Source: an uncultured Clostridia bacterium (lineage in GTDB: Bacteria; Bacillota; Clostridia; Oscillospirales; Oscillospiraceae). From it: a DNA stretch of 34,203 nt. The notes beneath the pieces are model-generated. The model was not told where the DNA came from and did no database searches. It saw only the letters and a program-made list of their open reading frames with translations. Location: positions 1-34,203 of the forward strand of contig CAMCKD010000009.1 in the NCBI GenBank assembly GCA_945875335.1, read 5' to 3'. Of the stretch, positions 7,069 to 29,265 are shown piece after piece. Each line of letters starts with the position of its first letter. Positions within the stretch are counted from its first letter, which is position 1. Both the position numbers and the translations under genes were made by a program.

Positions 7069-7114
7069 AGGTCTCTCCTTGGAAGGCCGGATTTTGCGGC
7101 CCTCCGCTGTCTTC

Positions 7115-21884: not shown

Positions 21885-21961
21885 GCGCCGGTAGCTCAGT
21901 TGGATAGAGTGACTGACTACGAATCAGTAGGTCGGGGGTTCGAGTCCCTTCCGGCGTACCA
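21885..21961 (+). tRNA. tRNA-Arg (anticodon ACG), CCA encoded
   Basis: A full cloverleaf can be drawn: acceptor GCGCCGG/CCGGCGT, D-arm GCTC...GAGT, anticodon stem ACTGA/TCAGT with loop CTACGAA (anticodon ACG), T-arm with TTCGAGT loop, and encoded ACCA at the end. ACG reads the CGN arginine codons after A34 is converted to inosine. Its 3' half (21915-21961) is the attachment site of the integrated element, and the tRNA is kept intact. Confidence 0.95.
21915..21961 (+). other. attL (tRNA side)
   Basis: 47 nt identical to 28984-29030, starting GACTACGAATCAG at the anticodon arm and running to the CCA end. The sequence differs on both sides, which sets the core limits. Confidence 0.9.
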
Positions 21962-21969
21962 TCTGAAAA

Positions 21970-22000
21970 GCCCAGAATCGTCATGATTCCGGGCTTTTTT
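21970..22000 (+). terminator. Element-borne terminator behind tRNA-Arg
   Basis: GCCCAGAATC (21970-21979) pairs with GATTCCGGGC (21985-21994) with one mismatch, followed by TTTTTT. Being inside the element, it replaces the native tRNA terminator that now lies beyond attR at 29040-29086. Confidence 0.9.
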
Positions 22001-22039
22001 CGTACTTCTGGGGCTGATTTGAGAAATACCAATTAAGGA

Positions 22040-22079
22040 TTTTGGGCCAATTTTGGGTCAATTGCAAAAATTTGGGTCA
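22040..22079. repeat. Probable integrase arm-type sites, left end
   Basis: Three related units in 40 bp: TTTTGGGCCAA, TTTTGGGTCA and TTTGGGTCAC. The first two form a 21-nt block (22040-22060) repeated exactly at 28847-28867 near attR. Short direct repeats inside both element ends are typical of arm sites for tyrosine integrases. The last unit overlaps the integrase stop. Confidence 0.7.
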
Positions 22080-23471
22080 CCCCAGCTTCTTTTCAGAACG
22101 GAAAATTGCGTCCGCGATACGCTCAGCAGACTGTGTGTCCGCCTGTTCGATCAGGTGGGAATAGATGTTCTGGGTTGTGCTGACCTGAGCGTGTCCAAGC
22201 CGTTTGGAAATGCTCACCGGGTCTGCGCCGGAGAAGTACAGAACAGAGGCCATGCTGTGGCGGAACTTGTGGGCGTGGATATGGGGAAGGTTGTATTTCT
22301 TCTCAAACCTGGTCAGGTAGCCGCTGAGTGTGTCAGGAGCCATGCACCCACCACATTCCCCGGTGAACACATAGGGCGTTTCCTTCCAGCGGTCACCCAT
22401 TGCAAGCCGGGTTTCCAGCTGCCATAGCTTGTATTGCCGGAGCAGCTCCATGGTTTCCTTTGGGAGCTTGATTGTACGATCTGCGCCTGTCTTGGTGGTG
22501 GATTCATACACGCCCCTGTCCGGGGTGTATAGCAAAGTGGTGTCGATGCGGATGGAAGAATCTGTCCAGTTGACCCGATCCCATTTCAGTCCAACGATTT
22601 CACCACGGCGGCACCCGGTAATCATCAGCAAGTGAATCAGCATCTGCCATTTGATAGGCTCCTTTGCGGCAGCGTCACGAATGGCAATCAGTTCGGAGGT
22701 TTGGAATGTTCCTACCTCCGCTTTTTCTTTTTGCGGCGGGGTTGCCTTGTCGGCGGCGTTGTAGGGGACAAGCATCTCCTTTTCGGCCTGTGCCAGAACG
22801 ACATGAATGAATCGGTGATAGGCCAGCACGGAGGTGGAGGAAAGGGGTTTGTCCCGTTCATCTGCGGTAAATAGCTTCTCAAACGGAATCCCTGCGGCTT
22901 TTGCGATTTGTTCCGCCTTTTCCTTCAGGATAGCCTCTCCTTTCCCGGCGGCATTCACTGTAGATTCCGCCACACCTGCCAGTCGTGCGACCTTTGCCAT
23001 GGACAGCTTCTTTTCTTTCAGAGCTACCCGGAAATCTGCCATGGGGATGGCCCTGGCGGCAGTCTCCCGGATACCGGCTTCTTCCAGATTCTGATAAAAT
23101 CTGTTCAGGTGGATGGCCCGGATGTCCTGAATGGGCATGTGCCCGATGGCCTGATTTGTGCGGGCCATGAGCCGTCGATATCCTTCCACGGTGCGGTGCT
23201 TCGCGCCGGTGCGCTCCTTCAGGTCAACCACATAGGCGGAATACTCGGCAAAGGTTTGACGGTTATCAAATGCGTAGCCCTGCTCAATACTGCGCTCAAA
23301 GTCCGCAGCGGCCCGCTGGACGGCTTTTTCTGTCTGACGTGCTGTCATTCCGGGAGTGGGCTTATAGGTCATTCTGTGTCGGATGCGCTTCCCCTGAGTG
23401 TCAAAACCGCCTGATACTGTGATACGGTAGGAAACGCCAGTTTTGCCGGATAGCTTTTCAATCGTTGCCAT
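22077..23471 (-). CDS. int: Tyrosine integrase with an embedded XRE-type helix-turn-helix
   Basis: Site-specific recombinase that inserts the element into tRNA-Arg. From 23471 (AAAGGTG upstream) it has 464 residues. An N-terminal arm-binding part (about 1-60) and a SAM-like core-binding domain (about 72-135) precede the catalytic domain, which has Arg288 in TGCRRGE, Lys327, His401 and Arg404 in HKFRH, His427 in RLGH and the nucleophile Tyr437 in NIYSH. Between core-binding and catalytic parts, about residues 145-205 read like a Cro/XRE domain (SMAKVARLAGVAESTV ... IAKAAGIPFEKLF), which is not part of the standard fold. It overlaps the repressor gene by 14 bp and ends 115 bp from attL. Confidence 0.93.
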   Translation of the reverse strand: MATIEKLSGKTGVSYRITVSGGFDTQGKRIRHRMTYKPTPGMTARQTEKAVQRAAADFERSIEQGYAFDNRQTFAEYSAYVVDLKERTGAKHRTVEGYRRLMARTNQAIGHMPIQDIRAIHLNRFYQNLEEAGIRETAARAIPMADFRVALKEKKLSMAKVARLAGVAESTVNAAGKGEAILKEKAEQIAKAAGIPFEKLFTADERDKPLSSTSVLAYHRFIHVVLAQAEKEMLVPYNAADKATPPQKEKAEVGTFQTSELIAIRDAAAKEPIKWQMLIHLLMITGCRRGEIVGLKWDRVNWTDSSIRIDTTLLYTPDRGVYESTTKTGADRTIKLPKETMELLRQYKLWQLETRLAMGDRWKETPYVFTGECGGCMAPDTLSGYLTRFEKKYNLPHIHAHKFRHSMASVLYFSGADPVSISKRLGHAQVSTTQNIYSHLIEQADTQSAERIADAIFRSEKKLG

Positions 23472-24300
23472 TTGGTTCACCTTTCCATATTGATGCAATA
23501 TCGATTTCAGGTAGTTCGACATTTTTCAATTCTTCATCAGCCATCTTCTTCAATAGTACCCAAAGCGTTTTATTTACGTTATATTCACTAAAATCTGATA
23601 CAGTTTTTTCGGATGTGCCATTTGCAAATAGCGAAAGTTCTTTTTCTGAACGGTCAAGCATTTGACACTGTGCAATAAGAGCGTTGCTAACCATTTGGTC
23701 ATATTTACCGCTTTTTGCAATTTCATAAACGGTAGAAGTATACTTTTTTTCGAATTCGTCATAAAAATCAAGAAGTCCGTGCACTACTTCTTGGCGAGGT
23801 TTGCCGTTATTGTATTCATGCGACGATACAAAGTATTCTCCTGTAGTGAATTCTATCATTTTTTTGCTCACATAATCAAATACCACAGCTGCTTTTTTCG
23901 CGGCAAAATATAAGTGTATTTGGTAAATGAAAAGAGGAAAATCTTCGCTATTGAGAAAAGAATAGACGGCTTGTGAGAGTTCTTTGTTCTCTGATTGCTT
24001 TATTCCGGCAAGATACCGAATAGTGCTTTCTGGTAAGCCAAGTTCATCAACTGCGTTAGGGGTTGGAGATGGGTCATCGGTTAGGCCAAGAAGATAGTCT
24101 GTGGTTACATGGTAGTGTGAAGCCAGCTTTGCAACCTTGTCGTATCCAACAGACCTTTCTATATTATCATCTTCTAATGCCTGAATGGTGGATTTACCAA
24201 CGCCGGTTGCAGCGGATACATCATCCATGGTCTGTTTCTTGTGAATATTGTGAACGATGCGGGCATCTTTGAATCGTTCTCCCCGTGTGAGTTTCACCAT
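23458..24300 (-). CDS. CI/Stl-like repressor, XRE helix-turn-helix at N-terminus
   Basis: Predicted master repressor of the element. Of 280 residues, about 10-75 form an XRE domain (MDDVSAATGVGKSTIQALEDDN ... YHVTTDYLLG), followed by a long, Lys/Phe/Tyr-rich C-terminal region that I do not recognise and that lacks a visible LexA-type Ser-Lys protease site. Lack of self-cleavage would fit derepression by binding a helper-phage protein, as for Stl of SaPIs, but this is inference. AGGAGG lies 6 nt before the start. It is transcribed away from the early genes, with clustered GAACA/TGTTC operators between. Its AT-rich sequence differs from the GC-rich integrase it overlaps. Confidence 0.85.
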   Translation of the reverse strand: MVKLTRGERFKDARIVHNIHKKQTMDDVSAATGVGKSTIQALEDDNIERSVGYDKVAKLASHYHVTTDYLLGLTDDPSPTPNAVDELGLPESTIRYLAGIKQSENKELSQAVYSFLNSEDFPLFIYQIHLYFAAKKAAVVFDYVSKKMIEFTTGEYFVSSHEYNNGKPRQEVVHGLLDFYDEFEKKYTSTVYEIAKSGKYDQMVSNALIAQCQMLDRSEKELSLFANGTSEKTVSDFSEYNVNKTLWVLLKKMADEELKNVELPEIDIASIWKGEPNGND

Positions 24301-24484
24301 ATTGCGCCTCCTAAATATGGAACAAATATTATTTATGTTCTATATATGTTTTTTGTTCGGAACATTTTGCACTGTCGAATAATATGTTGTATATTTAGAA
24401 CAACAACGACATGCGTTCTAAATTTTAATATAAACGAACAAGAGGTATCTGTCAACAACAATTTTATTATAGGAGGAAAAAACT
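24301..24484. promoter_or_regulatory. Divergent operator/promoter region of the element
   Basis: An AT-rich switch between the repressor and the early genes. TGTTC/GAACA half-sites recur: GGAACA (24319-24324), TATGTTC (24334-24340), the palindrome TGTTCGGAACA (24354-24364), the inverted pair TTTAGAAC (24394-24401) and GTTCTAAA (24415-24422), and CGAACA (24435-24440). A TAATAT at 24426-24431 could be a -10 for the early genes; exact promoters are not clear. A strong AGGAGG serves each direction. Confidence 0.75.
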
Positions 24485-24673
24485 ATGGCAAACAAAGAAA
24501 TTAAAGAGGCGGCTAAGAGAGCGGGAATTTATTTGTGGCAAGTTGCGAATGCCTATGGGATCAGTGACGGTAATTTCTCCAGGAAGCTCAGGGAAGAGTT
24601 TTCCGAAGTGGAAAAGGAAAAAATACTGAGCATCATTGACCGGCTGGCGCATGAGAAGCGGGAGGCGATTTAA
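24485..24673 (+). CDS. Small helix-turn-helix early regulator
   Basis: A 62-residue protein, first of the rightward genes, with a very strong TAGGAGGAAAAAAC leader. The sequence AAKRAGIYLWQVANAYGISDGNFSRKLR reads as a helix-turn-helix, followed by a second amphipathic helix (KEKILSIIDRLAHEK). Similar tiny proteins in Firmicutes prophages oppose the CI-like repressor (Cro-like) or help start replication genes. Its stop overlaps the next start by 1 nt. Confidence 0.8.
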   Translation: MANKEIKEAAKRAGIYLWQVANAYGISDGNFSRKLREEFSEVEKEKILSIIDRLAHEKREAI

Positions 24674-24912
24674 TGCCCAACGTATTGACAATTCGTGAAG
24701 CTGTTCAGCGGGCGAGGGATGACGGCTTGCAGATCACGGAATACACTCTGCGGCAATGGGTGAGGACTGGTGCGGTTCCAATCCGAAAGGTCGGGCAGAA
24801 GAGCCTCATTTTCTATCCGAACCTTGTAAAGTATCTGCAATGTGAGGACGGCGCAGACAATACACCCGCCACGGTGGCGGCTGCCCCCGGTATCCGCCGG
24901 GCAGACCTGTGA
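24673..24912 (+). CDS. MerR-like winged helix DNA-binding protein, possible excisionase
   Basis: A 79-residue protein with the pattern TIREAVQRARDDGLQITEYTLRQWVRTGAVP then KVGQKSLIFYPNLVKYL. This is the helix-turn-helix plus wing of MerR/AlpA/Xis-type proteins. Its place just after the first early gene, coupled by a 1-nt overlap (TAATG), suggests an excisionase or an AlpA-like activator of integrase. The C-terminal tail (ATVAAAPGIRRADL) is low complexity. Function not proven. Confidence 0.75.
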   Translation: MPNVLTIREAVQRARDDGLQITEYTLRQWVRTGAVPIRKVGQKSLIFYPNLVKYLQCEDGADNTPATVAAAPGIRRADL

Positions 24913-24926
24913 GGCGGTGATTTCCT

Positions 24927-25238
24927 GTGAAAATGCGTGTCCGCGATTCCCTGCGATATGGGAAAGAGAATGCGATTCCATCCAAGATGCTTGCTCAGAC
25001 GCTGGGGTTTCGTTCTGTTCGGGATTTGCAAAAGGCAATTGAGGGGGAGCGGGCAGCCGGGGCGGTGATTCTGTCTGACCCATGCGGTGGCGGGTACTAC
25101 CTGTCCAGTGACCCGGACGAGCTGCTGCGCTTCACCAGGACGCTAAATGCACGGGCAAAGAACACCCTAAAGGCCGCAGAATCCGCACAGCGGGCTCTGG
25201 ACGATGCAACAGGGCAAATGCGGATAAAGGGGGTGTGA
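24927..25238 (+). CDS. Small element protein of unknown function, before the replication genes
   Basis: 103 residues. GAGGCGGTGA lies 6 nt before a GTG at 24927; an ATG at 24933 in the same frame is the alternative start. The N-terminal half (RYGKENAIPSKMLAQTLGFRSVRDLQKAIEGERAAGAVILSD...GGGYYLS) looks like a winged helix, with the GYYLS turn as wing, and the C-terminal part is a long helix (ARAKNTLKAAESAQRALDDA). It may bind DNA as part of replication start. It sits 4 bp before the replisome organizer gene. Confidence 0.75.
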   Translation: MKMRVRDSLRYGKENAIPSKMLAQTLGFRSVRDLQKAIEGERAAGAVILSDPCGGGYYLSSDPDELLRFTRTLNARAKNTLKAAESAQRALDDATGQMRIKGV

Positions 25239-25242
25239 TTCT

Positions 25243-26010
25243 ATGGCAGACAGGAGAATGTTTTCAAAAAACGTTACGGAGAGCGATTTGTTCCTAGATA
25301 TGCCAGCCTCGGCACAAGCTCTGTACTTTCATCTTGCCATGCATGCAGATGATGATGGCTTCGTGGGGAATCCAAAGAAAATAATGCGGATGGTGGCGGC
25401 AGCAGAGGATGATGCCAGGCTCTTGATTACAAAGAGATTCCTAATCCCATTTGAAAGCGGCGTCGTCGTTATTCGGCACTGGCGTATTCACAATTATATA
25501 CAGAAAGACAGGTACCGCGAGACAATCTACACAGAAGAAAAATCAGCTATGTGCATACAGGAAAACAAGGCATATTCGCTGAGAAGTGGTGATGTTCAAT
25601 CATTGGATACAGGATGTATACAAAGTGTGTCCGAAATGGACGCTCAGAATAGATTAGGTAAGGATAGGATAGGAAAGAATAGAGAAGGAGAGAATGTGGC
25701 GGGCAAGCCGCCCGTGCCCACAAAGCCGATCAGAAAAGCCTATGGGGAATTTGGCTGGGTAAAGCTCAGCGACGACGAATACAACCGCCTTTCAAATGAC
25801 CTGGGAGAGGCCGAGGTCAAGCGGTGCATCGCCTATGTCGATGAATCAGCACAGACTACCGGGAATAAAAACAAGTGGCGGGACTGGAATCTCGTTATTC
25901 GGAAATGTCACAAGCAGGGGTGGGGTACGACCATGCAGCAGAAAAATGGAGGCTATGAGAGCGGCGTTGACCGCCTGGCCAGAATGTACAAGGAGGAATT
26001 TGGAGAATGA
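25243..26010 (+). CDS. Phage-type replisome organizer
   Basis: 255 residues. The N-terminal domain (MADRRMFSKNVTESDLFLDMPASAQALYFHL ... GFVGNPKKIMRM) is the winged-helix part shared by phage replisome organizers and DnaD-like primosome proteins. A low-complexity linker (about 125-165, RLGKDRIGKNREGENV) leads to a C-terminal DnaD-like helical region (WVKLSDDEYNRLSNDLG ... YVDESAQTTGNKNKWRDW). Such proteins bind the element origin and bring in helicase through a loader. The following loader gene overlaps by 4 bp (ATGA), which supports this. The origin may lie inside this gene, but I could not pin down iterons. Confidence 0.85.
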   Translation: MADRRMFSKNVTESDLFLDMPASAQALYFHLAMHADDDGFVGNPKKIMRMVAAAEDDARLLITKRFLIPFESGVVVIRHWRIHNYIQKDRYRETIYTEEKSAMCIQENKAYSLRSGDVQSLDTGCIQSVSEMDAQNRLGKDRIGKNREGENVAGKPPVPTKPIRKAYGEFGWVKLSDDEYNRLSNDLGEAEVKRCIAYVDESAQTTGNKNKWRDWNLVIRKCHKQGWGTTMQQKNGGYESGVDRLARMYKEEFGE

Positions 26011-26558
26011 CCAAACAGGATACATATCAAGTGCTTGCTGCATTACAGGCATTTTACCCGGATTCATTTCGCGGCATGACAGATGCGGCGGCTCAGTTGA
26101 AGGTCACACTTTGGCAAGAGCAGTTTGCTGATGAACCCGTCGCATTGGTACAGGCTGCCGTAAAGGCCTATGTCTCTACCGACAAGAAAGGATTTATGCC
26201 GGTTCCTGGACAAATTAAGGAACAAATAGCGATTCTACAGGACAAAGGCGGCCTGAATGAGCAGTATGCGTGGGAGCTGGTGACGAATGCTCTGCGCAAT
26301 AGTTCCTATGGTTCCTTGGAGGAGTTTGCAAAACTACCCGCCGATGTCCAGTGTGCCGTTGGCAGTCCTAACACGCTGAAAACCTGGGCGCAAATGAATT
26401 TCGGTGAGTTGCAGACGGTGATTGCATCCAATTTCAAGCGGGACTATCGGGCAATTGTTGCACAGAAGAGGGATTTTGCCAAAGTCCCGGAGTCCGCAAA
26501 GAGAATGATAACCCAAAATCAAATTGAGGGTGCAGATTTTGAAAGAGATGGAGCCTGA
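26007..26558 (+). CDS. Helicase loader/inhibitor, phage G39P-like
   Basis: 183 residues. The start region (YQVLAALQAFYPDSF ... LKVTLWQEQFADEPVALVQAAVKAYVSTDKKGFMPVPGQIKEQI) matches the pattern of phage loader proteins of the SPP1 G39P type, which deliver the replicative helicase to the organizer-bound origin. The C-terminal half (about 80-183) is helical and would contact the helicase. It ends the rightward operon. Together with the organizer it gives the element its own replication start while using the host or helper-phage helicase. Confidence 0.82.
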   Translation: MTKQDTYQVLAALQAFYPDSFRGMTDAAAQLKVTLWQEQFADEPVALVQAAVKAYVSTDKKGFMPVPGQIKEQIAILQDKGGLNEQYAWELVTNALRNSSYGSLEEFAKLPADVQCAVGSPNTLKTWAQMNFGELQTVIASNFKRDYRAIVAQKRDFAKVPESAKRMITQNQIEGADFERDGA

Positions 26559-26599
26559 ACGATTTCTGATCGGGTGTGACCCACTTGCGAAAACGTGAA

Positions 26600-26642
26600 G
26601 AGTTCCGCCACAGGATGATTTGAAAACCCGGTGGCGGAACTC
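26600..26642. terminator. Perfect 12-bp hairpin at the end of the replication operon
   Basis: GAGTTCCGCCAC (26600-26611) and GTGGCGGAACTC (26631-26642) with a 19-nt loop. It lies between the convergent loader and hypothetical genes. The T-run is weak (TATTCTT on plus), so it probably serves as a terminator, perhaps both ways. Confidence 0.65.
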
Positions 26643-26661
26643 TATTCTTGCTCTGAAGATG

Positions 26662-27210
26662 TCAAAGAACAGTAACGTCCTTTTCGATAAACTCCTGAAG
26701 CGTTGACATTGGAATGTAGATCACTTCACGCCGAGTTTTTCCGATTAGTGCAGTCTTTGGGCGGTCAGCACGCGGCAGCATGTATCCTGCAATTTCTAAA
26801 CCGTCCATCACATCACTGTTTGAATACAGGGTTGTGCCTGTATATTTGAATACTTTCAACATTTTCTTGATGTCGATTGCAACAACGTCACCACAAAGTA
26901 CACCGAGAATTTTTGAACCAGGAGCAGGCATCTCATTTTCGTCAATGATGCAGTAACGCGGGAAGCCGCACCGCCCTGATATTGCGCACCCCATCGCATT
27001 CATACAGAATAATGCACTATCTGCTTTCAGCTGTTCTGTCTCTGTTAGAACCGGCTTGTTCCACTCTACGAATGACATGAGGAAACGCGGATGCTTAGTA
27101 GTGTTTTTGGCAAAAGTAAGCATTATTTTCTTTATTGCCTCCAGCTCAGAAGTGTTCAGATACGGAATATGAGAACGAATTGAGCGGATACATTCTTCTC
27201 GACTTTCCAT
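26662..27210 (-). CDS. Cargo protein of unknown function
   Basis: 182 residues from the ATG at 27210, which has GGAGG 5 nt upstream; a TTG four codons earlier overlaps that site and is rejected. The N-terminal part is helical (ECIRSIRSHIPYLNTSELEAIKKIML). The middle contains three cysteines (FCMNAMGCAISGRCGFPRYC) that could bind metal, then a beta-rich region (KILGVLCGDVVAIDIKKML). The end is a possible DNA- or partner-binding part (LIGKTRREVIYIPMSTLQEFI). No membrane segment. I do not recognise the family. It is oriented against the replication genes in the spot where satellites carry cargo such as phage-interference genes. Confidence 0.75.
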   Translation of the reverse strand: MESREECIRSIRSHIPYLNTSELEAIKKIMLTFAKNTTKHPRFLMSFVEWNKPVLTETEQLKADSALFCMNAMGCAISGRCGFPRYCIIDENEMPAPGSKILGVLCGDVVAIDIKKMLKVFKYTGTTLYSNSDVMDGLEIAGYMLPRADRPKTALIGKTRREVIYIPMSTLQEFIEKDVTVL

Positions 27211-27330
27211 AATAACCTCCAATTTTTCTTGACTTGGGAGCGGACGGGGCTAATCATTACCCCGTCCCATCTTTGGATTGACGTTGGTCTTTGCATCTTA
27301 GTCTTGGCCGGGTGATGCAAGGGGCTTTTC

Positions 27331-27633
27331 TTATGCGGTGACCGGCTGCACCTGGGAGCGCCCGAAGTAGGAAGCCCGGCGGGTGCCGCTTTTGGTGGCG
27401 GGGTCTGTGATGGTGGTCTGGTACATGGCCTTGCTCTGATGGCGGACTTCATAGCCCAGCTGCTTCCACCCTGCCCAGGTGTGGGTTTCTTCGGCGATTC
27501 CTGCGGCCTCCTGGGCGGCGTGGCGGGCTTTTTCGTTGGCCCAGGCCATTCTCAGTGCCAGGGAAAAGGAAGCTGCTCCCTTGCGGTAGTGCCTCCATGC
27601 GGCCCTCATGATGCTGCTCAAATTGTACTTCAT
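27331..27633 (-). CDS. Small mobile-element protein with an ArdC-like N-terminal pattern
   Basis: 100 residues with AGGGGG before the start. The first half (NLSSIMRAAWRHYRKGAASFSLALRMAWANEKARH) is a pattern common to short proteins on Firmicutes mobile elements. The second half (TWAGWKQLGYEVRHQSKAMY ... ASYFGRSQV) resembles the ssDNA-binding start of ArdC-type antirestriction proteins, where a Trp is followed by Gly-Tyr/Arg-x-Val and a Lys-rich turn. No protease domain follows. An antirestriction or DNA-protection role is a guess. It has its own promoter at 27758-27786, divergent from the RHH gene. Confidence 0.72.
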   Translation of the reverse strand: MKYNLSSIMRAAWRHYRKGAASFSLALRMAWANEKARHAAQEAAGIAEETHTWAGWKQLGYEVRHQSKAMYQTTITDPATKSGTRRASYFGRSQVQPVTA

Positions 27634-27757
27634 GTGATTACCCCCTGCTTTTGTTTATCTGCCGTCTCTCCGGGCTGTCACCGTTCCAAATTCCTTTTCT
27701 TTACACCAGGGTCGAATGAAACGGTTTAGCTTGCGCTCCCTCTCTCTTTGTGTCTAT

Positions 27758-27786
27758 ATAATATAATATATGTTCCCATATATCAA
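27758..27786 (-). promoter_or_regulatory. Promoter of the ArdC-like small gene
   Basis: Minus-strand TTGATA (27781-27786), 17-bp spacer and TATTAT (27758-27763). The leader of about 115 nt (27634-27750) contains no recognisable structure. Confidence 0.65.
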
Positions 27787-27849
27787 GATGGGATAATGAA
27801 CAAATATGTACCCATATATTTAGTGAACATTCTATATGGACACATATAG
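27768..27849. promoter_or_regulatory. Operator repeats between two divergent promoters
   Basis: Two 16-bp direct repeats, ATATGTTCCCATATAT (27768-27783) and ATATGTACCCATATAT (27804-27819), differ at one base. A palindrome CTATATG-N4-CATATAG (27832-27849) covers the -35 of the RHH promoter. The first repeat covers the spacer and part of the -35 of the leftward promoter. This is what an autoregulating RHH protein would bind. Confidence 0.7.
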
Positions 27850-27865
27850 ACTTATATGCTATAAT
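27837..27865 (+). promoter_or_regulatory. Promoter of the RHH gene
   Basis: TGGACA (27837-27842), 17-bp spacer and a perfect TATAAT (27860-27865) with extended TGC. Confidence 0.8.
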
Positions 27866-27938
27866 ATAGCCATGGTGGAAGAGTGGGCAGATATGCCCCG
27901 CTCCCCACCGCATCACAGAATAGCGGGAGGCTGAGAGA

Positions 27939-28142
27939 TTGAACGTAGAAGAAAAGCGTGTGAGCGCAGCGCAGAGGAAAGCAACGGATAAATACCTTGA
28001 GAAGTTCGATGAAATGAAAATACGGGTGCCAGCAGGGCAAAAAGCAGCTGTAAAGGCTCATGCAGAGGCCCAGGGGGAGAGCCTGAACGCCTTTATCAAT
28101 CGGGCCATCACCGAAACCATGGAGCGGGACAGCGAAAAATAA
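27939..28142 (+). CDS. Ribbon-helix-helix (Arc/CopG-like) regulator, TTG start
   Basis: 67 residues. After a charged N-terminus (about 1-26) the sequence MKIRVPAGQKAAVKAHAEA and ESLNAFINRAITETMERD is a ribbon-helix-helix: one beta strand and two helices. The start is a TTG at 27939, chosen because GGGAGG lies 8 nt upstream and no ATG occurs before the RHH domain. It likely binds the repeats at 27768-27849 as a dimer and controls both divergent promoters. RHH proteins can be antitoxins, but the toxin next to it (28280-28369) has its own antisense RNA, so the RHH is more likely a transcription or copy-control regulator. Confidence 0.82.
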   Translation: MNVEEKRVSAAQRKATDKYLEKFDEMKIRVPAGQKAAVKAHAEAQGESLNAFINRAITETMERDSEK

Positions 28143-28167
28143 AACCCCCGTCACCAGGGCGGGAGCA

Positions 28168-28196
28168 TTGACAAAGAGAAGAATTTCGGGTATAGT
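28168..28196 (+). promoter_or_regulatory. Promoter of the antitoxin RNA
   Basis: A perfect TTGACA (28168-28173), 17-bp spacer and TATAGT (28191-28196). No open frame with a ribosome site follows on the plus strand, so it should make a short RNA. Confidence 0.85.
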
Positions 28197-28202
28197 AATA
28201 GC

Positions 28203-28290
28203 ATAACGAGGGCGCTACCGGCAGACGGTTCCCCCGAAACGTTTACCTAGAAGTAACCGCTTGCTTGGAGGCTGGGCGGTTACTTCTTTC
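28203..28290 (+). ncRNA. Antisense antitoxin RNA of a type I toxin-antitoxin pair (predicted)
   Basis: Predicted RNA of about 85-90 nt starting 7 nt after TATAGT. It ends in a perfect 12-bp hairpin, AGAAGTAACCGC (28249-28260) with GCGGTTACTTCT (28276-28287), then TTTCTAT. The hairpin overlaps the last codons and stop of the toxin gene on the opposite strand, so the RNA is complementary to the 3' end of the toxin message. This convergent 3' overlap is the layout of TxpA/RatA-like systems. Exact ends are inferred. Confidence 0.72.
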
Positions 28291-28369
28291 TATCATTTGC
28301 CTGGATAACCAGGGCGATAAGTGCGATAAGGAAAATGCCGAACTGAATCAGTTCTTGCCATGTAACCAT
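28280..28369 (-). CDS. 29-residue hydrophobic toxin, putative holin-like (type I TA)
   Basis: A short gene hidden by its size. It has a strong AAAGGGGGTGG ribosome site, then MVTWQELIQFGIFLIALIAL followed by a short polar, lysine-rich tail (ANDRKK). This is one membrane helix with a charged end, the make-up of the putative holin-like toxin family (Hol_Tox) and of TxpA/Fst-type toxins. The ribosome site can be hidden: CGCCCCC (read from 28401 to 28395) pairs with GGGGGTG (28382 to 28376) in the leader. The UAA stop lies inside the hairpin shared with the antisense RNA. A consensus promoter is at 28459-28487. Overproduction would be expected to damage the membrane; within the element it would act in maintenance or abortive defence. 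Confidence 0.85.
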   Translation of the reverse strand: MVTWQELIQFGIFLIALIALVIQANDRKK

Positions 28370-28458
28370 ACCGACCACCCCCTTTCTCTCGATTGGGGGC
28401 GAGAAGCATCACCCCCATGAGGGGGGAACCGCCTACCGTTACTGGTAGCGCCATGGAC

Positions 28459-28487
28459 AGAATATCACACCATTAGACGGAAATCAA
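28459..28487 (-). promoter_or_regulatory. Promoter of the toxin gene
   Basis: Minus-strand TTGATT (28482-28487), 17-bp spacer and TATTCT (28459-28464). The message would start near 28452 and carry an 80-nt structured leader. Confidence 0.72.
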
Positions 28488-28846
28488 GAACAATTCAATT
28501 GTATCGCTTCCCCAGGCGTGATAAAAGGTACTGCAACGTTACTGTGAAAGCTATGCGAGAGCGGCGAGCCCAAGATTCCGTTAGTTATTGTGATTTTTGA
28601 ATTGATTTCATTCACCTTTTGCAAAAAGGCATGCTATGAGCCGTTGTCGCAGAAAGCCTGTATAAATCAAAGGAAATTCGCCCACCATCTGCAATTATCA
28701 GAGGGGCATTTCGTAGTGTTATATAGGAAATATGGTTGGATGTTTTTTTCATCTTGCTTATGGAGCATGAGATTGATCTAAACGGCTTCATTTAAAAACA
28801 AATGTTTTTATCATTTTCGACTGTAAGGCTTTTTAAATGTGAAAAA
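28488..28846. other. Gene-poor stretch inside the element
   Basis: I see no gene with a ribosome site here. It is AT-rich with CTTTTTAAATG near 28830 and could hold attP-proximal binding sites. A 63-codon open frame in it has no ribosome site and no protein character. Confidence 0.5.
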
Positions 28847-28867
28847 TTTTGGGCCAATTTTGGGTCA
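28847..28867. repeat. Probable integrase arm-type site, right end
   Basis: 21 nt identical to 22040-22060, composed of TTTTGGGCCAA and TTTTGGGTCA, 117 bp inside attR. Same orientation as the left copy. Confidence 0.7.
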
Positions 28868-28983
28868 CACCCCCCGAAACGGCCCAATCAGTAGTGATAC
28901 GAGAAGTATTGAAAAAATAGGAAAAACATATAAATAATTTGCATTTCCGCATGAGATAATACGACACGTTATTCTCTGTATCG

Positions 28984-29030
28984 GACTACGAATCAGTAGG
29001 TCGGGGGTTCGAGTCCCTTCCGGCGTACCA
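28984..29030 (+). other. attR (copy of the tRNA-Arg 3' half)
   Basis: 47 nt identical to 21915-21961. It is followed by the native tRNA terminator, showing that this side is the original downstream chromosome. Confidence 0.92.
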
Positions 29031-29039
29031 AGGCAAGAT

Positions 29040-29086
29040 AATCCGAACCTTATCTCGGTGGGAGAAGGGTTCGGATTGTTTTTTTA
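29040..29086 (+). terminator. Original tRNA-Arg terminator, now cut off by the element
   Basis: AATCCGAACC (29040-29049) and GGTTCGGATT (29068-29077) form a 10-bp stem followed by GTTTTTTTT. It lies 10 nt after the CCA of attR. Confidence 0.9.
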
Positions 29087-29089
29087 CTT

Positions 29090-29257
29090 GGGACTCGAAC
29101 AATAAAATGCAGATGTCCGGTGGACATCTGCTCGGCGGCGGCTCGACGACGCCGACACCATAATGTTGCGAGTCCCTTCCGGCGTACCAAGAAGAATGAT
29201 CCGAACCTTATCTCAGCAGGGGAGGGGTTCGGATTATTTTTGTATTTGGGACTCGAA
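29090..29257. repeat. Tandem scar: second tRNA 3' end plus terminator, with T-arm-complementary ends
   Basis: GGGACTCGAAC, the reverse complement of the tRNA T-arm, lies after each of two terminators (29090-29100 and 29248-29257). Between them is a hairpin GCAGATGTCC-N3-GGACATCTGC (29109-29131), then 21 nt of tRNA 3' end (29169-29189) and a second terminator. The stretch 29090-29177 has imperfect inverted ends (GGGACTCG ... CGAGTCCC), like a small mobile unit. No gene is seen between 29031 and 29265. Confidence 0.75.
29199..29240 (+). terminator. Second copy of the tRNA-Arg terminator
   Basis: ATCCGAACC (29199-29207) and GGTTCGGAT (29226-29234), then TATTTTTG. It is a close copy of the hairpin at 29040-29077. 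Confidence 0.8.
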
Positions 29258-29265
29258 CAAAAAAT

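What the first reader, a model, noticed from the sequence alone, without database searches (positions are those of the whole stretch)
21915..29030. Compact 7-kb satellite-like element in tRNA-Arg with its own replication start but no structural genes
The sequence shows a perfect 47-nt att repeat, integrase, CI-like repressor, divergent operators, two early DNA-binding proteins, replisome organizer, helicase loader, cargo genes and a toxin-antitoxin pair, with no terminase, capsid or conjugation gene. From known PICI layouts this fits a phage satellite in a gut Clostridia host. The replication pair (organizer plus G39P-like loader) means it calls in a helicase rather than encoding a primase-helicase as SaPIs do.
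Basis: partly seen in the sequence, partly recalled or inferred. Interest (0 to 1): 0.82.

Follow-up and report, generated by a model that had tools for sequence, protein, structure and literature searches.

The report
Compact modular phage-satellite-like element
A 7-kb mobile DNA element sits in an arginine tRNA gene of a gut Clostridia bacterium, can probably pop out as a circle and copy itself but shows no genes for a virus particle, and belongs to a family that keeps its integration end while swapping its DNA-replication genes.

Summary
A perfect 47-nt repeat (21915-21961, 28984-29030) at tRNA-Arg bounds a 7,069-bp element with integrase, CI-like repressor, small DNA-binding proteins, DnaD-like organiser and G39P-like loader; no terminase, capsid or relaxase matched. 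A deleted prophage is disfavoured: same-genus genomes show the empty site, and in a clade of six integrases (84-93% identical to this one) four elements close at 6.9-7.1 kb while replication genes differ outright: DnaD+G39P, AAA_25, primase-helicase, DnaD+DnaC, G2P-like Rep. Three more distant relatives are closed circles with a rebuilt attP; one pairs an organiser-like DUF6291 protein with a G39P loader. Another circle (8,390 bp) comes from what is probably a DNase-treated faecal particle library. Phage satellite is the best reading, but no helper, packaging signal or induction was shown, and one integrase relative sits beside a relaxase. Loader-type replication is not new: satellite Javan208 has an annotated DnaI loader. 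Least expected: the integrase carries an HTH-like insert in its core-binding domain, matched in length in 58 of 59 aligned integrases; I saw no description of it.

The parts
21885..21961 (+). tRNA-Arg (acg), integration target, still recognised as intact after insertion
   Evidence: ARAGORN; Rfam RF00005
21915..21961 (.). attL core, 47 nt
   Evidence: perfect direct repeat
28984..29030 (.). attR core, 47 nt
   Evidence: perfect direct repeat; flanks contiguous in empty sites
22039..22078 (.). left arm-type repeats TTTTGGGYCA-like (three, read by eye)
   Evidence: D11; sequence; analogous repeats near att in relatives; binding inferred
28846..28867 (.). right arm-type repeats (two)
   Evidence: identical 22-mer to left end; binding inferred
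22077..23522 (-). tyrosine integrase with XRE/Cro-type HTH insert (about residues 158-222) in the core-binding domain; most relatives start at the internal MATIEK (about 23471)
   Evidence: PF00589, and HTH_3 below its cut-off; alignments
23458..24300 (-). CI-like repressor
   Evidence: phrog_8; 72% identity over 97 N-terminal residues in L100
24301..24484 (.). divergent promoter/operator region, GGAAC/GTTCC half-sites
   Evidence: compared by eye with L100; promoter-like sites
24485..24673 (+). small protein, 62 aa, probable DNA-binding
   Evidence: phrog_17740; found in L131, L132, L133, L141 but not L130
24673..24912 (+). MerR/HTH_17-like protein, 79 aa, probable excisionase/AlpA-type
   Evidence: weak HTH_17; found in all five tRNA-Arg-clade siblings
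24927..25238 (+). 103-aa early protein (phrog_2113)
   Evidence: at E<=1e-3 tblastn hits 2 of 50,697 phage records, both faecal scaffolds L110 and L111
25243..26010 (+). DnaD-like replisome organiser/helicase loader
   Evidence: phrog_8489 E=1.2e-73; up to 60% identity to phage proteins
26007..26558 (+). G39P-like helicase loader
   Evidence: PF11417 E=6.6e-10
26662..27222 (-). 186-aa cargo ORF without recognised family
   Evidence: no match at E<=0.1 (only phrog_19563 E=0.13), none in 69, 125
27331..27633 (-). 100-aa conserved cargo protein
   Evidence: 54-72% identical copies in L130/L099, L132/L100, L135, L137, L142; not found in L131, L133, L141
27634..27938 (.). divergent regulatory region with TATATGGG/ACATATA-like repeats
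   Evidence: by eye, shared with L099 and changed in L100
27939..28142 (+). ribbon-helix-helix (Arc/HicB-like) regulator, 67 aa
   Evidence: 71-84% identical in L099, L100, L133; weaker in L131; not found in L141
28280..28369 (-). 29-aa Hol_Tox-like membrane peptide (type I toxin candidate)
   Evidence: PF16935; similar small ORFs at C43, C69, C25 of own genome
28168..28290 (+). putative antisense RNA: promoter-like 28168-28196, terminator-like hairpin 28261-28279
   Evidence: function inferred

Best explanation
A complete integrated phage-satellite-like element. Shown by sequence: site-specific insertion at the 3' end of tRNA-Arg with the tRNA restored; its own integrase, repressor and phage-type replication genes; no genes recognised for a particle or for conjugation. 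Inferred: when the CI-like repressor is lifted, orf62/orf79 (Xis/AlpA-like) turn the integrase to excision at the arm and core sites; the circle replicates when the DnaD-like organiser and G39P-like loader bring in a DnaB helicase from host or helper; a helper phage packages the product. The integrase's extra HTH domain would be one more DNA (or repressor-type) contact in the recombination complex.
For: Exact att duplication and tRNA. Empty attB in same-genus genomes, flanks contiguous (L191 90% over 210 nt, L182 85% over 207 nt; L181, L187, L193 shorter). Of the 21 same-genus loci besides the window, 2 carry a related element (L180, L183), 5 match the right flank contiguously and 14 match it no further than 53 nt. 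A clade of six integrases (FastTree support 1.0): the five that can be placed lie at tRNA-Arg, four close at 6.92-7.07 kb, and replication genes differ. Closed circles L142 8,599 bp, L254 6,869 bp, L261 8,822 bp, each with one tRNA-like core between arm repeats; L261 carries DUF6291 + G39P. L110, an 8,390-bp circle in a faecal scaffold set that fits a filtered, chloroform- and DNase-treated particle study. Replication proteins fall in phage families. One relative has an HK97 protease-capsid fusion (L233), two have tape-measure-like genes (L141, L215). General layout resembles streptococcal satellite Javan208.
Against: No helper phage, cos/pac site or packaging gene identified; comparison with 12.5 kb of the host's one TerL-bearing contig gave only chance-length matches (best 15 nt, E=0.07). 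The window's own attP junction was not found in viral contigs. The particle-library relative is distant (integrase 32% identical) and its link to the published study is inferred: the accession prefix does not occur in that paper or its protocol paper. The integrase class also occurs beside a MobA-type relaxase (L103) and on large contigs: L264 (36.9 kb, phage-type early genes), L259 (49.9 kb), and interrupted copies L278 and L291 (43.7 and 43.9 kb). Gut relatives of this host may make GTA-like particles that package random DNA (PMC12946183, passages).
Confidence: 0.77

Rival explanations
1. An integrative mobilisable element that lost (or never had) a relaxase and is moved by conjugation in trans through a mimicked oriT.
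For: Same integrase class beside a MobA/VirD2-type relaxase in L103 (PF03432 E=1.1e-37); the RHH protein of relative L261 has a NikA-like match (E=3e-5, below cut-off).
Against: No relaxase among the 10 window proteins; replication genes are phage families; a circular relative in a probable particle library. oriT was not searched for.
Confidence: 0.12
2. A prophage remnant: integrase, repressor and replication region left after deletion of the structural genes.
For: Gene order resembles the early region of a temperate phage; HTH-type integrases also occur on 36.9-49.9-kb contigs (L264, L259).
Against: Three siblings at the same tRNA also close at 6.9-7.0 kb while replication genes are exchanged; circular relatives of 6.9-8.8 kb; in 16 of 16 element-bearing genomes no TerL match lies within 60 kb of the element on the same contig, though many of those contigs are short.
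Confidence: 0.06
3. An integrated plasmid-like element that spreads by natural transformation or vesicles; circles in particle libraries are carry-over.
For: Circular forms exist; some relatives carry rolling-circle (G2P-like) Rep.
Against: CI-type repressor and phage helicase-loader genes; capsid and tape-measure genes in a few relatives.
Confidence: 0.05

Closest known systems
Streptococcus satellite phages (Javan208, 8.7 kb; Javan378, 7.7 kb)
   Same: Compact; integrase, oppositely read small-gene block, and in Javan208 a 286-aa hypothetical protein followed by an annotated DnaI helicase loader.
   Different: Their integrases lack the HTH insert; Javan208 carries a Clp protease-like protein; of window, L099 and L100 query proteins against nine Javan208 proteins only the L100 DnaC-type loader hit (E=3e-8; integrase not in that set).
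PICMI of Vibrio (PMC10803314, passages read)
   Same: Minimal: integrase, AlpA-type regulator, one replication gene, few unknowns, no capsid-remodelling genes.
   Different: Integrates next to fis, is modelled with DUF3987 and DUF5906 primase domains, has a known virulent helper; here tRNA site, CI-like repressor and loader-type replication.
SaPI-type PICIs (recalled)
   Same: int, master repressor, replication module, chromosomal att site.
   Different: No TerS, capsid-size or packaging-interference gene recognised; Stl-type derepression not testable.
VEIMEs and tycheposons (named in PMC11389934, passages; details recalled)
   Same: Integrative elements with tyrosine recombinases, proposed as phage satellites.
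   Different: Marine hosts; no sequence comparison was made.

Membership tests
Phage satellite (general) | Site-specific integration with its own recombinase | tested here: met
   47-nt att, integrase, empty sites
Phage satellite (general) | Lacks genes for a full particle | tested here: met
   None of the 10 proteins scanned hits a structural family
Phage satellite (general) | Excises to a circle | tested here: inconclusive
   Seen for relatives L142, L254, L261, not for this copy (no match)
Phage satellite (general) | Packaged in a helper's particles | not testable with these tools
   Only indirect: distant circular relative L110 in a probable particle library
PICI | int and divergently transcribed master repressor (recalled) | tested here: inconclusive
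   int and CI-like gene are both on the minus strand; the divergence is between CI and the early operon
PICI | Packaging redirection or interference genes (TerS, capsid morphogenesis, ppi; recalled) | tested here: not met
   No such family hit; ORFs of unknown function remain (186 and 100 aa)
PICI | Induced by a helper phage protein | not testable with these tools
   -
cfPICI | Own capsid genes | tested here: not met
   Absent here; a protease-capsid fusion only in relative L233
PICMI | int + AlpA + DUF3987/DUF5906 primase at fis | tested here: not met
   Different site and replication genes
IME | Relaxase or oriT | tested here: inconclusive
   No relaxase hit; oriT not searched

The most novel reading that the evidence does not exclude
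The HTH-in-integrase recombinases mark a large, undescribed group of compact satellites in the host's order of gut Clostridia, built as plug-and-play cassettes: a constant integrase/AlpA end with a varied repressor, an often shared RHH end, and a replication slot refilled with unrelated systems (DnaD+G39P, DnaD+DnaC, AAA_25, primase-helicase, DnaB-like, rolling-circle Rep), sometimes with a lone capsid or tape-measure gene captured from helpers. The inserted HTH would let the integrase itself read an operator or partner repressor, tying excision directly to the lysogeny switch.
Probability: 0.4. Interest if true: 0.68.

Novelty: new variant of a known kind. Interest (0 to 1): 0.55.

Why it matters
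Phage satellites are well charted in a few genera, but in the listings I saw (open-access library, 15 of 67 and 10 of 3,228 papers shown) none dealt with them in Oscillospiraceae or their relatives, dominant gut bacteria whose phage biology is little known. An integrase signature would make such elements searchable. Siblings at one tRNA site with unrelated replication systems are a natural experiment on which replication genes a satellite needs, and a test of whether replication type tracks the helper.

Tried and rejected
Decayed prophage: set aside on siblings, circles and empty sites. Helper search: own genome gives one TerL (phrog_2, contig C28) and none with PF03354; C28 looks like a prophage fragment by its ORFs; no shared packaging-like sequence. 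TerL matches occur in 16 of 16 element-bearing genomes searched, but no element-free control was run, so this is not evidence for helpers. Exact attP search of viral contigs: nothing; the arm-repeat pattern hit one 52-kb contig, not followed. PADLOC: none of the 5 window proteins tested matched; among the 5 relatives' proteins L110 gave AbiD and a weak PDC-M03B match. NCBIfam: of 9 window proteins only the integrase and RHH matched, all below the curated cut-offs.

Closing elements by repeat: 19 of 65 loci (L132 added by hand with an imperfect repeat). Dropped: L209, L214, L221, L228, L232, L241 (repeats of 21-39 nt, a few mismatches allowed, not at a tRNA end) and loci with no repeat, many cut by contig ends. 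L130 also has a longer repeat at spacing 7,080, so its size may be 6,921 or 7,080. L231 and L233 rest on 24-25 nt; L225 and L227 have no tRNA called; L223 is only 3.8 kb.

Contig lengths of HTH-plus and HTH-minus integrases from the 45 loci: my first count (29 v 15, p=0.0017) was wrong, because L289 and L291 had not been assessed and L278 was left out. Corrected, 29 v 13 assessed: medians 11.5 v 16.9 kb, Mann-Whitney p=0.0055. With L278, L289, L291 as plus (HTH-like on inspection; L289 only partly seen): 32 v 13, medians 12.5 v 16.9 kb, p=0.023, and 4 of 32 v 4 of 13 exceed 30 kb. Weak, and confounded by assembly breaks and by how sequences were picked; I do not lean on it.

Structure prediction of the integrase was submitted and still unfinished; no fold result exists.
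Full report
What is there. The repeat and the tRNA are exactly as stated. Between them lie, left to right: integrase and CI-like repressor (minus strand), then a divergent run of orf62, orf79, orf103, a DnaD-like organiser and a G39P-like loader (plus strand), then a 186-aa ORF of unknown family and a conserved 100-aa protein (minus), an RHH regulator (plus) and a Hol_Tox-like 29-aa ORF (minus) facing a promoter-like site. Identical 22-mers sit about 80-140 bp inside each att core and look like integrase arm sites. G+C is 48.1% against 57.0% outside.

It is a separable unit. In same-genus genomes G020 and G024 the left flank, the 47-nt core and the right flank run on without the element (L191 and L182). 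The short third att-like copy at 29169-29191 is inside the flank that matches there, so it belongs to the chromosome, not to this element.

It has siblings. Integrases 93, 92, 91, 85 and 84% identical over the alignment occur in L130 (=L099, G030), L131, L132 (=L100, G005), L133 (goat rectum MAG) and L141 (viral contig). The tree joins the six with support 1.0. Four close at 7,069, 6,921, about 6,954 (imperfect repeat) and 6,928 bp, all at tRNA-Arg; L131 also ends at tRNA-Arg but was not closed, and L141's contig ends at the integrase. orf79 is found in all five siblings; RHH in four (not L141, and weak in L131); the repressor varies; the 100-aa protein was found in L130 and L132 only. Replication genes are unrelated: DnaD-like + G39P (window); AAA_25 (L130); a 634-aa AAA_25 protein with sub-threshold zinc-finger and Toprim matches and phrog_239 primase/helicase E=9e-35 (L131); DnaD-like + DnaC (L132); a DnaC 79% identical to that one beside an unsearched 211-aa ORF (L141); a G2P-like Rep piece, below the Pfam cut-off but phrog_3584 E=1.4e-18 (L133). 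So calling in a helicase is true of this copy but not a family trait.

Wider family. A profile of ten integrases hit 57 of 394 genomes of the host's order (host included; unnamed in the tool, with a named sibling called Oscillospiraceae) at E<=1e-75; 42 of the 69 listed matches span the insert region, the other 27 cover mainly the catalytic half. Of 65 loci I examined, 19 (window included) could be closed by a repeat, 3.8 to 13.5 kb, at tRNA-Arg, -Met, -Thr, -Asn, -Pro, -Leu or unassigned sites. I scanned only some of their larger ORFs. Among those, structural matches were L233 (7.6 kb; prohead-protease/capsid fusion, PF04586 E=1.4e-30, PF05065 E=2.8e-10) and L215 (13.5 kb; tape measure phrog_1535 E=6.4e-58); the unclosed L141 also has one (phrog_28775 E=1e-75). 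L103, a 6.8-kb contig, pairs such an integrase with a relaxase.

Circles. Of the 45 viral-contig loci, 21 were held as whole contigs; four of these, all HTH-type, have terminal repeats: L142 (99 nt), L254 (127), L261 (127), L263 (77). In L142, L254 and L261 the joined ends show one tRNA-3'-end-like core between arm repeats, as a rebuilt attP must; I read these by eye, by likeness to tRNA-Met, -Thr and -Arg att cores. In L263 no attP was seen beside the integrase. L261 pairs an organiser-like DUF6291 protein with a G39P loader (PF11417 E=1.3e-13). L110 (MT836843.1) has a 124-nt terminal repeat and the same arrangement by eye, though no whole tRNA was called; it and L111 hold the only orf103 hits among 50,697 phage records at E<=1e-3. 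The record says human fecal samples, Mexico, clone scaffold_3214. The iScience study PMC8361208 (passages, and section 30 in full) purified particles with 0.22-um filters, chloroform and DNase I and assembled with IDBA-UD at k up to 125, which would give a 124-nt overlap for a circle; the accession prefix is not in the text, so the link is an inference.

The integrase. Between the core-binding helices it has about 65 extra residues that match Cro/CI-type HTH models (HTH_3 E=6e-4, below cut-off, residues 167-217; phrog_8 at 157-242). Of 59 integrases of at least 350 aa (3 shorter ones dropped of 62), 58, window included, have 71-82 residues where L140 has 13. The insert was matched to HTH models only for the window; the others are judged by length and pattern, and they were picked by similarity, so this is not a frequency. 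Javan208, Javan378, L276 and the host's other integrase L121 lack it. In the passages I read, the tyrosine-recombinase classification PMC8138268 describes other insertions but not this one; searches listed no description.

Verdict. A compact element with its own integration and replication genes and no recognised particle genes, best read as a phage satellite of an apparently undescribed group; excision is shown only for relatives and the means of transfer is unproven. The nearest documented anatomy I compared is the streptococcal satellite Javan208.

Noticed in passing
L233 7811-9559 (G229 genome): A 7.6-kb tRNA-Leu element with replication-initiation (phrog_3584) genes and a 582-aa HK97 protease-capsid fusion; no other large ORF that looks like a head gene was listed.
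   Followed up: partly
L141 3599-7195; L215 10740-12380: Tail tape-measure-like genes in satellite-like elements, in L141 directly behind the DnaC gene.
   Followed up: partly
window 29031-29264: A third partial att copy and a duplicated 69-nt terminator-like unit right of attR, also in empty sites and in L099: likely remains of older tRNA-Arg insertions or a chromosomal repeat.
   Followed up: partly
window 28180-28470; G000 C43, C69, C25; L099 16166-16246: Hol_Tox-like small ORFs are dispersed in the host genome and found in this element and, elsewhere and inverted, in sibling L099.
   Followed up: partly
L120 10600-20000 and L121 1-1990 (G000:C1 about 335-347 kb): A second int/MerR-like/DnaD-like/AAA-loader-like region beside tRNA-Ala in the same genome; its far end was not found.
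   Followed up: partly
L252 (MT836267.1): An 11,334-bp circle from the same faecal scaffold set with integrase, AAA_25 primase-helicase-like and terminase genes.
   Followed up: partly
L137, L142, L219: Sigma-70-like genes recur (L219 only below the Pfam cut-offs); could act on late phage genes.
   Followed up: no
L110 5832-6638; L213 9715-10776: Abi_2 (AbiD-type in L110) abortive-infection genes as cargo.
   Followed up: no
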